NCBI GenBank assembly: GCA_013298995.1
Contig: JAAFJW010000005.1
Coordinates: 1-43,578 of the forward strand
Length of the DNA: 43,578 nucleotides
Direction: 5' to 3'
DNA from: Sphingobacteriales bacterium
GTDB taxonomy: Bacteria; Bacteroidota; Bacteroidia; Sphingobacteriales; Sphingobacteriaceae
Part shown: in pieces, positions 5,919-41,522 of the stretch
How positions within the stretch are numbered: the stretch's first letter is position 1
How the letters are laid out: the number at the start of each line of letters is the position of its first letter
Notes under the pieces: generated by a model
The model's input: only the letters and a program-made list of their open reading frames with translations
The model's database searches: none
Told to the model about the DNA's origin: nothing
Position numbers and translations under genes: made by a program

Positions 5919-6818
5919 ATGAACCTAACAACCGCATTTAAACAAAAAGTTACCACCGCACTAAAAGATGCCCGCACACTTTACGGCGGTACCGATAAAG
6001 ATTTTGCCAGCAAGTACGGTATGAACCAAGCAATTTGGAGCCGTATAAAAAACGGCGAAACCGAAAAAGTACTGGACGAAAACAAATGGCTTGAAATTGG
6101 GCGCATACTAAACGTAAGCCTAAACGAACGCACCTGGGCACTAGCCCGCACACAGGTGTACGATGCCATAGAAGCCGATGCCGTTTTTTGCCAACAAAAT
6201 AGCAAAAGTATGGTACTGGTTGATGATTGCGCCATAGGCAAAAGCTTTACCGCCAAATACCTAAGCCGTAAACTAAACAACTGCTTTTGTTTAGATGCTA
6301 GCCAAACCAAAACCAAGCAACTATTTATACGTGATTTTGCGAGGGTTTTGGGTGTAGATAGCAAAGGCAAAATGGCCGATGTTACCGCAAATATTAAGTA
6401 CTACCTAAAAATGCTAAACAAGCCTTTGGTAATTATTGATGAAGCTGGCGACTTAGAGTACAACGCTTTTTTAACGCTTAAAGAATTTTGGAACGCCACC
6501 GATGGCGAATGTGGCTGGTATATGATGGGTGCCGATGGCCTAGCCGATAAAATAAACCGTGGCATAGCCAATAAAAAAGTAGGCTACCGTGAAATACTAA
6601 GCCGCTACAGCGATAAGTATATGAAAATTGTACCTACCGACCGTGAGGGCGAACACAGCTTTTACCGCCAGCTAATAACCGATGTATTGGCAGCCAATAT
6701 GAAAGATAAAACCCGCCTGCCCGAACTGGTAAAAAAATGTATGGTGCGTGATAACGATGGTAAAATAGGTGGCCTGCGTAGAGCCGAAACCCTTTTAATT
6801 TTAATGAATGCCGAGTAA
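5919..6818 (+). CDS. MuB-like AAA+ ATPase
   Basis: A 299-residue ATP-dependent target-DNA binding protein that would deliver targets to the transposase and stimulate it. Residues about 20-65 form a Cro-like helix-turn-helix (DKDFASKYGMNQAIWSRIKN), as at the N-terminus of MuB. The AAA domain has a degenerate Walker A, VDDCAIGKS (residues 101-109), keeping GKS but lacking the first Gly, and a Walker B LVIIDE (170-175). RYSDKYMKI near residue 230 may hold the arginine finger. Length matches MuB (312). The next gene overlaps its end by 11 bases, suggesting coupled translation. Confidence 0.9.
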   Translation: MNLTTAFKQKVTTALKDARTLYGGTDKDFASKYGMNQAIWSRIKNGETEKVLDENKWLEIGRILNVSLNERTWALARTQVYDAIEADAVFCQQNSKSMVLVDDCAIGKSFTAKYLSRKLNNCFCLDASQTKTKQLFIRDFARVLGVDSKGKMADVTANIKYYLKMLNKPLVIIDEAGDLEYNAFLTLKEFWNATDGECGWYMMGADGLADKINRGIANKKVGYREILSRYSDKYMKIVPTDREGEHSFYRQLITDVLAANMKDKTRLPELVKKCMVRDNDGKIGGLRRAETLLILMNAE

Positions 6819-36901: not shown

Positions 36902-38803
36902 ATGAAAAAATCAGTTTTAATGGCCATTGCCATTTGTTTATTAAGTGTGTTTGCCCAGGCGCAAACGTACCAATTAAAGTACCCGAAAATACAGCTTAAA
37001 GCCGATACAGTAAAGGTGCAAGGTAATCTTAACGTTGTTGGCGGGCAATCGGTATCGGGTAATTTTAACTTGCAAATATTAAGGCCTGCAAGTGCTGTGT
37101 TTACGGATAGTAGCAGAAACTTTGTATCGGCATTGGGCGATAGTACAACGTTTATTAGAGGCGATGGGAGTTTGGCTAAGATAAGCAGCTTAAAACCTGC
37201 ACCATCAGGTAATTATGTGAGTAAAACGGTAATGGATACGATTAGTGCGGGTAAAGTGTTTACGCCAACCGGCTGGATGTATTTTACAGATGGAAACCCA
37301 TATACAAACGGAATGTCATCGAGTTTAGATTATAGCCAACTTCAAACACAATATGCTAATCCTACAAAACAACTTACCTCGTCTTTGACTGCACAATACG
37401 GGTTAAATCAAGCTTATTATGTTAACAAGAATAACGTAGTTGAACACACGTATCTTTTTAATGCAATTGGCAACAAAATTTCGATGTCGGGCTTTGGAAT
37501 TGGTGTTAATCAAAATACATTTTCGATAAAAAACGATACGATTGGAAACATTACGTTTTCAAACGTAGAAAAAATATCAACTGTTGATTCTGTTTTAAAG
37601 CCCATAAAATTTGTAAGTGGCCTGCAATCTACCGTAGCACCTCTTGCACCTCAAGACGTTGTACGGAAAATGGATATTGATAGTTTGCAAGGGTTTAACG
37701 TTAAAACAAATGCCGTAAACCAAGAGGTAGATGGTTCTAAAACATTTAAAAATACCTTAAATATAGGTACTATGGCAGGCGGTCGAGGTGGATTACAATT
37801 TCAAAAAGGCATTCAGTTAAGAGTCAATCCAGCTACGCCTGAATTAAATGAGGTGTTTGTTCAAGTAGGAGAAACCCGAGGGTCGGTAGGTACAGCTTAC
37901 AGGTACAGCGGCATAAGTGTCTCCGATGGTATGAGCTCAAGGGATTTTACTTTCCCTGGTCGTAGCGGGTTTTTTGCTTTACTTTCAGATTTTGAGCCTT
38001 TTCAAACAAAAATAGATTCGTTAAAAGCAAGTGCAATTGCAAATCAAAACCGAATTATTAATACTGGATTTGGACTTGCTGGAGGTGGTAATTTAACTGC
38101 GGATAGAACTTTAACTGCGGATACAACAGTTTTAAAATCAAAAGCTGGGGCATTGATAGATTATAATATTTTGAAAAATAAATTAAACCTAAATACGGTT
38201 CAAATTGAACTCATAAAAGCTACAAACTTTAACAGAGGGCTTGGTTTATTAGGCGGCGGGAGTATTAATAGTACTGAGGGTGGCGATATATTTTACAGGG
38301 CTGACACAACAGTTTTAAAATCAAAGGCTGGGGCATTGATAGATTATAATATTTTAAAGGGTGCTATAGGTACGATAAGAAATCAAAATTTCACATCCGC
38401 TTTTGGTATTTCCGGAGGCGGTAGTATTAACGGTACAGAAGGTGGCGATATAGTATTTGGGGCTGATACAACAGTTTTAAAATCAAAGGCTGGGGCATTG
38501 ATAGATTATAATATATTAAAGGGTGCCGTAACGGCAATTTCGGCAGGAACTTTTACAGGGTCAGCAACGTTAGATTTTCCCGCCACAGCAGCATATACAA
38601 GTTCAGATTTACAATTTACACTTGCGGGAGTAAATCTTGGAGATATTATAGTGTTAGGTACGCCTGTTAATCCAAGCCTCCCTAATAGTTGTTTTACTGC
38701 GATTGTAAGCGCAACAAACCAAGTTAATATTAGATTTAATAATTACAGCTCAGTGTCGGCTAATCCCCCTTCGGGCATTTTTAAAGTTAAAGTTTTTAAA
38801 TAA
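36902..38803 (+). CDS. Large fibre-like protein with Sec signal peptide
   Basis: 633 residues. Residues 1-21 (MKKSVLMAIAICLLSVFAQA) are a textbook signal peptide with AQA cleavage, unusual for a virion protein. The middle is beta-rich. The C-terminal third repeats GGGxI/LxxxxGGDI-ADTTVLKSKAGALIDYNILK three times (near residues 405, 466 and 520). GFGLAGGGNLTADRTLTADT matches the phage fibre motif. Base composition is AT-richer after residue ~130. It may be a fibre or be exported to act at the host surface. Both readings are inference. Confidence 0.65.
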   Translation: MKKSVLMAIAICLLSVFAQAQTYQLKYPKIQLKADTVKVQGNLNVVGGQSVSGNFNLQILRPASAVFTDSSRNFVSALGDSTTFIRGDGSLAKISSLKPAPSGNYVSKTVMDTISAGKVFTPTGWMYFTDGNPYTNGMSSSLDYSQLQTQYANPTKQLTSSLTAQYGLNQAYYVNKNNVVEHTYLFNAIGNKISMSGFGIGVNQNTFSIKNDTIGNITFSNVEKISTVDSVLKPIKFVSGLQSTVAPLAPQDVVRKMDIDSLQGFNVKTNAVNQEVDGSKTFKNTLNIGTMAGGRGGLQFQKGIQLRVNPATPELNEVFVQVGETRGSVGTAYRYSGISVSDGMSSRDFTFPGRSGFFALLSDFEPFQTKIDSLKASAIANQNRIINTGFGLAGGGNLTADRTLTADTTVLKSKAGALIDYNILKNKLNLNTVQIELIKATNFNRGLGLLGGGSINSTEGGDIFYRADTTVLKSKAGALIDYNILKGAIGTIRNQNFTSAFGISGGGSINGTEGGDIVFGADTTVLKSKAGALIDYNILKGAVTAISAGTFTGSATLDFPATAAYTSSDLQFTLAGVNLGDIIVLGTPVNPSLPNSCFTAIVSATNQVNIRFNNYSSVSANPPSGIFKVKVFK

Positions 38804-38805
38804 AA

Positions 38806-39033
38806 ATGAAAATGAAAAAATACAGCTTATGGGAGCGGTTTACCCTGCCGTCACCTGCTTTTTTTAATAGGGTAAAAGGGTTTGGTATTGCATTGGTTGC
38901 GCTATCGGCGGGGCTTATAAAGCTAAACATCGTACCCGAAACCATTACAACTATACTGGCAACGGCGGGTGCTGTAATGGGTTTGGTTTCACAGTTTAGT
39001 GTGGATGCTGATAAAGTGGAGGGAATGAAGTAA
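38806..39033 (+). CDS. Small two-helix membrane protein, holin-like
   Basis: 75 residues. Two hydrophobic segments, GFGIALVALSAGLIKLNIVP and TITTILATAGAVMGLVSQFS, are joined by a tight turn; both ends are charged. Similar proteins occur in Bacteroidota phages near fibre and lysis genes and are often called holin-like. It starts two bases after the fibre gene. With a four-helix holin at 33465, this may be a second holin, a pinholin or a superinfection-exclusion protein. Confidence 0.6.
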   Translation: MKMKKYSLWERFTLPSPAFFNRVKGFGIALVALSAGLIKLNIVPETITTILATAGAVMGLVSQFSVDADKVEGMK

Positions 39034-39143
39034 ACGCCGTAGACTTCTTATTGTGTTCTCAAGACAAATTTAAAATGCAAGCGCATTTAGTATCTACGGC
39101 GTAAGTCAGGTGCTTAATGCGCTTTTTTTATGTCTTGAGAACA
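39034..39143 (+). promoter_or_regulatory. Structured leader or attenuator before the methylase
   Basis: Three stems interlock. A: ACGCCGTAGA (39034-39043) with TCTACGGCGT (39093-39102). B: TGTTCTCAAGACA (39054-39066) with TGTCTTGAGAACA (39131-39143). C: AAGCGCATT (39079-39087) with AATGCGCTT (39116-39124), followed by a T7 run (39123-39129). A crosses both B and C, so either a pseudoknot forms or A excludes C, the terminator. This is the pattern of a two-state leader controlling the gene at 39174. All A, B and C stems are perfect. Confidence 0.6.
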
Positions 39144-39173
39144 AACAAATATAATAAATAAAACAATAAGAAT

Positions 39174-39962
39174 ATGCTAAAAATCAATTTAAAAACGCCA
39201 ATTTCGTATTACGGGGGCAAACAAACTATGCTAAAGCACATAATGCCTTTAGTGCCAACACACAACACGTATGTAGAGCCCTTTTGCGGTGGCTGTGCTG
39301 TGTTTTGGGCAAAAGAAGCCGTACCCGCCGAAATACTAAACGATTATAACGGCATGGTGGTAAATTTTTACCAACAGCTTAAAACAAACTTCGACGCTTT
39401 AAAAGTTAAAATAGATGCTACGCCTTACAGTCGGGAGGTTTATAAGTCCGCAATGTTTGTGTATAACCACCCTTATATACATAGCGATGTTTATAAGGCC
39501 TGGGCGTTTTGGGTGTGTTGTGTCCAAGGTTTTAGTAATAAGATAGGCAGCTGGAGAGGCAGTAATACACGCCATAAAGAGGCTTTACTTAACTTTAATA
39601 AAAAGCAAGCATTTACTGTAGAGCTAGCCAAACGCTTAGAAATAACCCAAATTGAGTGTGTAGATGCGGTTAAACTTATACTATCAAAAGACACACCCGA
39701 AACTTTCTTTTATATAGACCCTCCGTATGTAGATAGCAACCAAGGTCACTACGGTGGTTATATGCAGTCGCATTTTGATAATTTGTTAGAAAGTTTGGAA
39801 GGCTTACAAGGTAAGTTTTTGTTGAGTAGTTACCCTAATGCAGGCTTAGCTTCATATACGGTCAAAAACGGCTGGTATTCAAAAGCGGTAGATATGCACC
39901 TAAGTGCCGCCAATTCTAATAAGCGCAAGGTGGAGATGCTCACGGCTAATTATCCGATATAG
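39174..39962 (+). CDS. DNA adenine methyltransferase (D12 class)
   Basis: 262 residues. SAM-dependent N6-adenine methylase of the Dam/D12 family: PISYYGGKQTML at the N-terminus, SAM-binding motif I VEPFCGGCAVFW (PFCGG 36-40) and catalytic motif IV FYIDPPYVDS (DPPY 182-185). A likely function is modifying phage DNA against host restriction, or regulating phage promoters. It is the last gene before the right end, where Mu carries the modification gene mom, and is headed by a structured leader and closed by a strong terminator. The recognition sequence cannot be told. Confidence 0.9.
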   Translation: MLKINLKTPISYYGGKQTMLKHIMPLVPTHNTYVEPFCGGCAVFWAKEAVPAEILNDYNGMVVNFYQQLKTNFDALKVKIDATPYSREVYKSAMFVYNHPYIHSDVYKAWAFWVCCVQGFSNKIGSWRGSNTRHKEALLNFNKKQAFTVELAKRLEITQIECVDAVKLILSKDTPETFFYIDPPYVDSNQGHYGGYMQSHFDNLLESLEGLQGKFLLSSYPNAGLASYTVKNGWYSKAVDMHLSAANSNKRKVEMLTANYPI

Positions 39963-39973
39963 TAGTGTTTTTT

Positions 39974-40022
39974 AAATTAACTGCACTTTAATTATTATTT
40001 AAAGTGCAGTTAATTTTTTTTT
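39974..40022. terminator. Strong terminator at the right end
   Basis: Perfect 18-bp arms (39974-39991 and 39999-40016), core TTAACTGCACTTTAA, with a 7-base loop, followed by T9. It ends late transcription about 50 bases before the prophage-host junction, and protects against transcription from the other side. Confidence 0.9.
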
Positions 40023-40069
40023 TGGTAGTTTGGTTTTAAAATTTTGGTAGTTTGGTTTTGCCGTTTATA
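40020..40069. other. Right end with tandem 22-bp transposase-site repeats
   Basis: TTTTGGTAGTTTGGTTTT occurs at 40020-40037 and 40042-40059, a period of 22 bp, then GCCGTTTATA to the junction. Mu's R1 and R2 MuA sites are adjacent 22-bp units, so the spacing is telling. The inverted left end holds the same ACCAAnCTACC core at the same depth. Confidence 0.7.
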
Positions 40070-41522
40070 ACTTTATCCAATCTCGGCTTTAGCTCTTATC
40101 GTATCAGTAACAGCTTGTCGTAAAAAATCAGACCCAGTTGCCGAGGAAACACCTCAAATTAAATTAGAAAACTACTCGGTTAACCCATCTTTGGTAAAAA
40201 CCTTGCCAGGTTTTGATAACCTACAAATTACTACCATGATAAGTAGCGATGATGTACTAGCAGCATCGCCAAACTTTATTTTTGGTGCACAGCCCGATGG
40301 TGCAGGTATAATTAAAGACCCAGCAGGCGATGGTTTTATTATGCTCAACAACCACGAAATTTTACAAGCCGTTTCTAGAATTTATCTTGATAAAAACTTA
40401 AAACCTATTAAAGGTGAGTATATTTTAAACTCAGACGGTGGCCAAACACGTTTATGCTCGGCTACCATGGCAACACCCGAAGAACACGGTTTTGCTAAAA
40501 ACTTATTTTTAACAGCAGGAGAAAGCGGTATTGAGTCTTCTTTTCACGCGGTTGACCCTTTAATGCCAGGCGATGCAAGTACCGATAAAATTGTGAAAGC
40601 ATTAGGTAAATGGAATGCCGAAAATGCTGTGCCTCTACCTAAAACTGCTTACCCAGGTAAAACAGTTATTATGATTGGTGAAGATGAAAATGAGGGGCAA
40701 GTTGCTATGTTCGTTTCTAATACGCAAGGCGATATTAACAATGGTAAAGTTTATGTATTAAAAAGAACAAATAACGACCCTGTTGAAACCAATATGTACA
40801 AAGGCGCCTCTTACGATGTTGAGTTTGTTGAAATTGATGACCCTAAAGAGTCAACAGGTGCTGCCATACAAAAGCAGACGGTTGCCAAAAATGCCATTAT
40901 GTTTGCCCGTATTGAAGATTTAGATTACAAAAAAGGAAACAACGCAACTAACGGACGTGAAGTTTACTTTGTGGCTACTGGTCGTAGTCAAACTGATAAA
41001 CTTACACCTGTTACAGGATTTACTATGTGGGGTAGAGTGTATAAATTAGTTTTAGATGCAACCAACCCACTAAAAGGTAAATTAGAAGTTATAGTTGACG
41101 GTGCCGATAACCCTGGTAAAAGTATCGTAAACCCCGATAACTTATGTGTAACCGAAAACTTTGTTTATATACAAGAAGATGGAGACTCTTATTACAAACT
41201 TAACGACCATGATGGTATTATTTGGCAATATGCAATGTCTAGCAAAACATTAAAGCCAATGATTGAAATGAATCACCGCAGAAACGATGCCGTGTTTAAT
41301 GCAAAATACAATGCAGAGAATTCTACTTTACTAAGTTCTTGGGAATATGGTGCCATGTACGATGTATCTGATTTAACAGGTATGCCCAACACATTTGTGG
41401 TAAACCTACACCCACACACTTGGAAAAATGATAAATACAAAAACGCAGATAAAGGAACTAAACGTATTAGAGATAATAACGAAGGCGGACAAATTGTAAT
41501 TGTACGTGGCGTAGAGAAATAA
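40070..41522 (+). pseudogene. DUF839/PhoX-like lipoprotein gene, split by the prophage
   Basis: The frame enters from the prophage junction at 40070-40076 without a start codon and reads PISALALIVSVTACRKKSDP, a lipoprotein signal with its Cys. The mature part, ~470 residues, has DUF839-type features: FIFGAQPDGAGIIKDPAGDG, MIGEDENEGQVAMFVSNTQG, SIVNPDNLCVTENFVYIQED. DUF839 includes PhoX alkaline phosphatases and related metal-binding beta-propellers. The first seven codons are at 1081-1101. Apart from the split, no defect is seen. A TTG at 40191 is the first possible restart, but would lack the signal. Confidence 0.85.

What the first reader, a model, noticed from the sequence alone, without database searches (positions are those of the whole stretch)
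39034..39143. Two-state leader in front of the adenine methylase
Three perfect stems interlock so that A (39034/39093) excludes or knots with terminator C (39079/39116, followed by T7) and the outer stem B (39054/39131). Perfect pairing in three overlapping stems is unlikely by chance. It would act as an attenuator, or be a free structured RNA of about 110 bases. Mu's mom, at the same position, is famously tightly controlled, so an RNA switch here would be a parallel solution.
Basis: partly seen in the sequence, partly recalled or inferred. Interest (0 to 1): 0.7.

Follow-up and report, generated by a model that had tools for sequence, protein, structure and literature searches.

The report
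Phage RNA gene beside DNA-modification genes
The folded sequence in front of this phage's DNA-methylase gene is real, but it is most likely a small RNA gene read from the opposite strand, belonging to an unnamed RNA family that sits next to several unrelated kinds of DNA-modification genes in phages of Bacteroides and its relatives.

Summary
The three interlocking stems are there as described and are not chance: 0 of 2000 shuffles reach the observed score. The interpretation needs changing. The same A1-B1-C1-A2-C2-B2 layout, with wholly different sequences, lies beside the D12 methylase in many Bacteroidota transposable phages; across 35 members all 32 tested pairs show double compensatory changes. 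In A and a fourth helix D, wobble pairs are G-U only if the minus strand is read (25:0 and 32:0). A Bacteroidota -7 promoter box (TAnnTTTG) abuts the minus-strand 5' end in 33 of 35 (2.7% in shuffles), and most members end in a U-run. So this is probably a minus-strand ~110-nt pseudoknotted ncRNA gene, divergent from the methylase, not its leader. No Rfam match. A covariance model finds it next to other cargo too: Mom, thymidylate-synthase-like, ATPase-acetyltransferase and other methylase genes, always on the opposite strand. Best guess at function: a cis-antisense lock on the modification genes, like DonS RNAs at susC; a trans-acting role is not excluded. Nothing here shows expression.

The parts
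39028..39145 (-). Proposed ncRNA gene (transcribed 39145 to 39028), window member of the new family
   Evidence: Covariance model R1 matches 39031-39140 on the minus strand, 32.8 bits, E 2e-5; the window was one of 35 training sequences
39146..39153 (-). Bacteroidota -7 promoter box TATATTTG (consensus TAnnTTTG), 4 nt upstream of the conserved B anchor
   Evidence: 33 of 35 members have such a box 2-7 nt before B, 2.7% in shuffles; consensus from PMC7366714
39131..39143 (-). Helix B, 5' strand in the RNA (with 39054-39066)
   Evidence: 13 bp perfect; 12 of 12 aligned pairs covary
39116..39124 (-). Helix C, 5' strand in the RNA (with 39079-39087)
   Evidence: 9 bp perfect; 11 of 11 aligned pairs covary
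39093..39102 (-). A2', apical-loop strand of pseudoknot helix A (with 39034-39043)
   Evidence: 10 bp perfect; 9 of 9 aligned pairs covary; wobbles 25 minus-strand GU to 0
39079..39087 (-). Helix C, 3' strand in the RNA
39054..39066 (-). Helix B, 3' strand in the RNA
39051..39067 (-). Helix D, which brackets the 3' strand of B (39064-39067 with 39051-39054); only 4 bp in the window, 7-12 bp in many relatives
   Evidence: family-wide test obs 524 vs null 342 sd 16.5
39034..39043 (-). A1', 3' strand of helix A
39028..39033 (-). U-rich 3' end (weaker here than the U-runs of most relatives), overlapping the stop codon of the upstream + gene
39174..39962 (+). D12-class (Dam-like) adenine DNA methyltransferase, the divergent cargo gene
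   Evidence: PF02086, E 1.2e-28; TIGR00571 below its cut-off; phrog_56
38806..39033 (+). 75-aa ORF, last gene upstream; its stop codon abuts A1
   Evidence: no family match

Best explanation
The 110-nt element is a minus-strand ncRNA gene of a new family. It is transcribed from a housekeeping-type Bacteroidota promoter lying between it and the cargo gene, folds as a long B-C hairpin whose apical loop (A2') pairs with a 3' segment (A1') to form a pseudoknot, and ends at a U-run after A1'. [Structure and strand: shown by covariation, wobble asymmetry and promoter position. Transcription: inferred.] It is the fixed partner of an exchangeable DNA-modification cassette read in the opposite direction (D12 methylase, Mom, thymidylate-synthase-like, ATPase-acetyltransferase). 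Proposed function, inferred only: cis-antisense control. The first cargo gene usually starts within about 0-45 nt of the RNA's 5' end and no housekeeping + strand promoter is seen there, so cargo mRNA should come from late transcription running through the RNA gene. In lysogeny the RNA and its opposing promoter would keep the modification genes off; strong late transcription would override it. Helices B/D (and possibly A1' with two partners) could give the RNA two states. My confidence is about 0.9 for a minus-strand structured RNA gene and about 0.5 for the antisense-lock function; the figure below is for the whole statement.
For: Same topology with different sequences in relatives. 32/32 pairs covary in the structural alignment, 97.6% paired against 61.5% shuffled; MAFFT-only alignments give the same for A, B, D. 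Strand-neutral scoring: A wobbles 25 minus to 0 plus, D 32 to 0; earlier strand-neutral picks 31:4 and 25:5 for A. Promoter box in 33/35; + strand box in 1/35. U-runs after A1' in most. Model R1 scores the minus strand of the element higher wherever both strands hit. RNA adjacent and divergent at 70/80 TS-like, 18/80 ATPase-GNAT (all among the ~30 closest) and 11/80 Mom loci (all among the 17 closest). First cargo ATG mostly 0-45 nt from the RNA. YUNR in the loop 25/35, expected 11.6, a motif of antisense-RNA loops (own knowledge). Precedent: DonS family, 78-128-nt cis-antisense RNAs divergent from susC (PMC7366714).
Against: No expression data. In the window itself every pair of A, B and C is Watson-Crick, so strand cannot be read from it alone, and its + strand folds more stably (-41.9, z -6.9) than its minus strand (-31.8, z -3.9); its U-run and D helix are weak. 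Wobbles in B and C are nearly strand-neutral, and a small hairpin next to A2 leans to the + strand (33:11). The RNA does not cover the cargo start codon. Strong, sequence-independent structure is more than a simple antisense RNA needs. Some members have unknown cargo (L117, L133), so the link to modification is not absolute.
Confidence: 0.5

Rival explanations
1. Trans-acting RNA. The minus-strand ncRNA is itself an anti-defence or host-directed regulatory RNA that travels in an anti-restriction island, and does not regulate its neighbour.
For: Structure conserved far beyond sequence; own promoter box and U-run; kept with at least five unrelated cargo types and at more than one place in phage genomes; some cargo is not recognisably a modification gene.
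Against: Invariably divergent and usually within 45 nt of the first cargo ATG, which a free trans RNA would not need; no stand-alone copy was seen among the strong hits inspected.
Confidence: 0.33
2. Plus-strand leader or attenuator of the methylase mRNA: A competes with the C plus T-run terminator and with B.
For: In the window C is followed by a T-run on the + strand; + strand MFE -41.9 kcal/mol, z -6.9; R1 also hits some + strands weakly.
Against: A and D wobbles are A-C mismatches on the + strand; T-run after C absent in relatives such as L001; R1 scores the minus strand higher at every site.
Confidence: 0.08
3. DNA-level element: inverted repeats acting as operators for a late activator or as recombination seams that let cargo be swapped.
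For: Cargo is swapped around a constant element; a small ORF with weak similarity to Mor/late activators is often the first cargo gene.
Against: Sequence is little conserved while pairing is; wobble asymmetry has no meaning for DNA palindromes.
Confidence: 0.05
4. Chance palindromes.
For: AT-rich intergenic sequence gives some crossing stems: 657 of 2000 shuffles have some such topology.
Against: 0 of 2000 shuffles reach the score; recurrence in dozens of loci.
Confidence: 0.01

Closest known systems
DonS-type cis-antisense RNAs of Bacteroides (divergent from susC homologues; PMC7366714)
   Same: Small (78-128 nt) RNA divergently encoded to the gene it represses, same phylum; the window RNA has the same size, orientation and a housekeeping-type promoter box.
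   Different: Phage-borne; next to DNA-modification cargo; deeply conserved pseudoknot. No sequence comparison with DonS was made, so homology is not claimed.
Phage Mu com-mom module
   Same: Modification gene as last gene of a transposable phage; relatives here carry true Mom proteins (PF25680); expression of mom in Mu is controlled (Com activates mom translation, PMC6483171 abstract).
   Different: Mu uses proteins (C, Com, plus host factors; own knowledge); here a divergent ncRNA is the constant element. A Com homologue was not searched for.
IS10 RNA-OUT, R1 CopA and similar antisense RNAs (own knowledge)
   Same: Stable hairpin RNA opposing the mRNA leader, U-turn (YUNR) loop.
   Different: Long-range pseudoknot A and the alternative helix D are extra; pairing to a target is untested.
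Rfam 15 families
   Same: Nothing at curated thresholds.
   Different: No hit for the window even at E up to 1; member L044 gives only sub-threshold hits to miRNA-type hairpins and a few sRNAs.

Membership tests
Cis-antisense RNA (DonS-like) | Small RNA gene on the strand opposite to, and at the 5' side of, the regulated gene | tested here: met
   Strand and position by R1 and ORF context
Cis-antisense RNA (DonS-like) | Own promoter reading away from the target gene | tested here: met
   TAnnTTTG box 33/35; activity not shown
Cis-antisense RNA (DonS-like) | Overlaps the target mRNA | tested here: inconclusive
   Overlap follows only if cargo mRNA starts upstream of the RNA gene; no + strand housekeeping box found
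Cis-antisense RNA (DonS-like) | Represses the target | not testable with these tools
   Needs experiment
Plus-strand attenuator leader | Mutually exclusive stems conserved on the mRNA strand | tested here: not met
   A and D wobbles allowed only on the minus strand
Plus-strand attenuator leader | Intrinsic terminator (hairpin plus T-run) conserved on the mRNA strand | tested here: not met
   T-run after C present in the window, absent in L001; not counted over all members
Any Rfam 15 family | Score at or above the gathering threshold | tested here: not met
   Window and 19 related loci; only other hits were RT-17 elsewhere in L039/L040
Mu mom-type module | DNA-modification gene at the right end of a transposable phage | tested here: met
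   D12 MTase is the last phage-side gene before host-like sequence in the window; Mom opposite the RNA in L115, L123, L125; same layout reported for Flavobacterium phage fF4 (PMC7761591)
Mu mom-type module | Com translational activator | not tested
   Not searched; a different small HTH-like ORF (phrog_17790) precedes some cargo

The most novel reading that the evidence does not exclude
A phylum-wide phage RNA family is the constant controller, with two alternative folds (B with A1':A2', against D with A1' paired downstream), of an interchangeable DNA-modification island whose enzymes are chemically unrelated (adenine methylation, Mom modification, thymidylate-synthase-like base synthesis, ATPase-acetyltransferase). 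It would be an RNA-based answer to the problem that Mu solves with proteins.
Probability: 0.35. Interest if true: 0.85.

Novelty: new variant of a known kind. Interest (0 to 1): 0.7.

Why it matters
It would be an undescribed structured RNA family in transposable phages of Bacteroidota, including DGR-bearing (Hankyphage-like) gut phages, tied to anti-restriction DNA modification. It offers a marker for finding new DNA-modification genes (whatever sits opposite this RNA), and a testable RNA mechanism for how phages time DNA modification. A published strand-specific RNA-seq set for the Hankyphage (PMC12135933) could confirm or refute the transcript without new experiments.

Tried and rejected
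DNA similarity in phage records: no match for the window region; two human-gut phage records matched member L040. A relative search with the 75-aa upstream protein gave nothing. The first listing of genome loci read minus-strand loci the wrong way round; corrected. Automatic triple-stem picks mis-assigned A or B in several members, so the 35-member alignment was curated by hand. Its training rows were cut to consensus columns and padded with N so that MAFFT kept the columns; MAFFT shifted the window row by one column, which only lowers its counts. Rfam: nothing at threshold. Phylum-wide model search found only 3 of 395 genomes, one of them the window's own and one weak, so the RNA is patchy. 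Weak R1 hits (30-34 bits) in L126, L127, L129-L132 without promoter box or A helix are treated as false. Literature: no paper found describing this RNA; preprints and most subscription papers were not covered.

Full report
Observation. The three stems are present at the stated coordinates: A 10 bp, B 13 bp, C 9 bp, perfect. B and C nest and A crosses both, because A1 lies outside B and A2 lies in the loop of C. Shuffling the 146-nt region 2000 times keeping dinucleotides never reached the real score, and no other place in the 43.6-kb window reaches it.

Setting. The window is one contig of a genome whose relatives and promoter type point to Bacteroidota. It carries a Mu-like transposable phage (transposase 3760-5877 and ATPase 5919-6818 by their sequence, not scanned against libraries). 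The element lies between a 75-aa ORF (38806-39033) and a D12-class adenine methyltransferase (39174-39962; PF02086), the last phage-side gene before a host-like lipoprotein gene.

Relatives. Two viral contigs with methylases 38-39% identical carry the same order A1 B1 C1 A2 C2 B2 at nearly the same distances upstream, with entirely different stem sequences. Genome relatives L006, L011, L012 and L016 do too. A wider search gave 80 viral loci; an automatic search for the topology with strand-neutral scoring found many scoring 64-106, whereas 550 shuffles peaked at 64. I curated 37 members and aligned 35. All 32 pairs of A, B and C show changes on both sides, 97.6% of cells pair against 61.5% in shuffles, and sliding the partner by 1-3 columns destroys this. 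Because segments were chosen by eye for complementarity, these figures lean towards the structure. Plain MAFFT alignments of two subgroups, without curation of columns, still support A, B and a fourth helix D, and pairing A2 of one member with A1 of another loses the score (842 against 536, sd 18).

Strand. Imperfect pairs tell which strand folds: G-U on one strand is A-C on the other. With G-U and A-C scored equally, helix A has 25 minus-strand G-U and no plus-strand ones, helix D 32 and none; less curated picks gave 31:4 and 25:5 for A. B and C are nearly neutral, and a small hairpin beside A2 leans the other way (33:11). The covariance model, which contains only B and C as pairs, scores the minus strand of the element higher wherever both strands hit. 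In the window itself all pairs of A, B and C are Watson-Crick, and its + strand folds more stably in silico, so the strand assignment there rests on the family.

Signals. Two to seven nt before the 5' strand of B on the minus strand, 33 of 35 members have TAnnTTTG, against 2.7% in shuffles; a + strand box occurs in 1 of 35. TAnnTTTG is the -7 consensus of the primary sigma factor in this phylum (PMC7366714). Downstream, A1' is followed by a U-run in most members. The picture is a compact gene: promoter, B-C hairpin, pseudoknot A, U-run. Helix D brackets the 3' strand of B, and a stretch 3' of the U-run is often complementary to A1' (513 against 444, sd 13), so alternative states are possible. 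I infer this but have not shown it.

Not only methylases. Model R1 was run on genomes of the family: 19 of 301 hit, about 12 of them convincingly, several without the methylase. The RNA there faces Mom proteins (PF25680: L115, L123, L125), a different DNA methyltransferase (phrog_56: L120), thymidylate-synthase-like proteins (PF00303: L119, L121; in L092, L096 and L103 followed by a D12 methylase), an ATPase-acetyltransferase (phrog_11143: L116; and by sequence L137, L138) or unknown genes (L117, L133). Searching from the cargo side, the RNA was found on the opposite strand upstream of 70 of 80 thymidylate-synthase-like loci, 18 of 80 ATPase-acetyltransferase loci (all among the nearest relatives) and 11 of 80 Mom loci (all among the nearest 17); some contigs recur between sets. 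In L135 and L137 the module lies beside Mu gpG-like morphogenesis genes rather than at a right end (identification by eye). The first cargo ATG is usually 0-45 nt from the RNA's 5' end. A small ORF, phrog_17790, weakly like Mor/late activators and below curated cut-offs, is often the first cargo gene.

Mechanism. Shown: a conserved RNA structure, strand preference, promoter-box position, divergent partnership with modification cargo. Inferred: that it is transcribed; that it keeps the modification genes off in lysogeny by antisense pairing or by opposing transcription; that late transcription overrides it. A trans-acting role is a serious rival. The closest working analogue is the DonS group of cis-antisense RNAs (PMC7366714); the closest biological setting is Mu com-mom. 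Membership in a named RNA family is not claimed: no Rfam family matches at its threshold.

Verdict. It is best described as a new structured phage RNA family linked to DNA-modification cargo, function not yet tested.

Noticed in passing
window 40040-40200: The phage's right end appears to fall inside a host gene: the ORF 40191-41522 continues upstream in frame into a lipoprotein-signal-like stretch (SALALIVSVTACRKK) that breaks off near 40060-40080, as expected for Mu-like insertion.
   Followed up: partly
window 38100-38530: The tail-fibre-like ORF 36902-38803 contains several near-identical repeats of ADTTVLKSKAGALIDYNIL.
   Followed up: no
L329:1164-1433, L348:1200-1427, L137 and others: A small protein family (phrog_17790, unknown function) with weak similarity to Mor/late transcription activators is often the first gene after the RNA; possible regulator of the modification cassette.
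   Followed up: partly
L137:4606-5226, L138:3653-4186: The ATPase-acetyltransferase gene (phrog_11143) is followed by a formyltransferase-like ORF (by eye); the pair may be an undescribed modification system.
   Followed up: no
L092, L119, L121, L299-L378: Short (206-219 aa) thymidylate-synthase-like proteins are almost always in cassettes with this RNA and often with a DNA methylase; possibly modified-base synthesis.
   Followed up: partly
L039:930-1023, L040:924-1017: RT-17 RNA (Rfam RF03020) about 2 kb upstream of the methylase; suggests a diversity-generating retroelement, so these are probably Hankyphage-like phages.
   Followed up: no
window 39974-40020: A strong terminator-like inverted repeat (TTAACTGCACTTTAA / TTAAAGTGCAGTTAA followed by a T-run) lies just after the methylase.
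   Followed up: no
G123 contig C6, bases 1-183: The nearest methylase relative (82% identical) is cut off at a contig edge, so its leader could not be compared.
   Followed up: no
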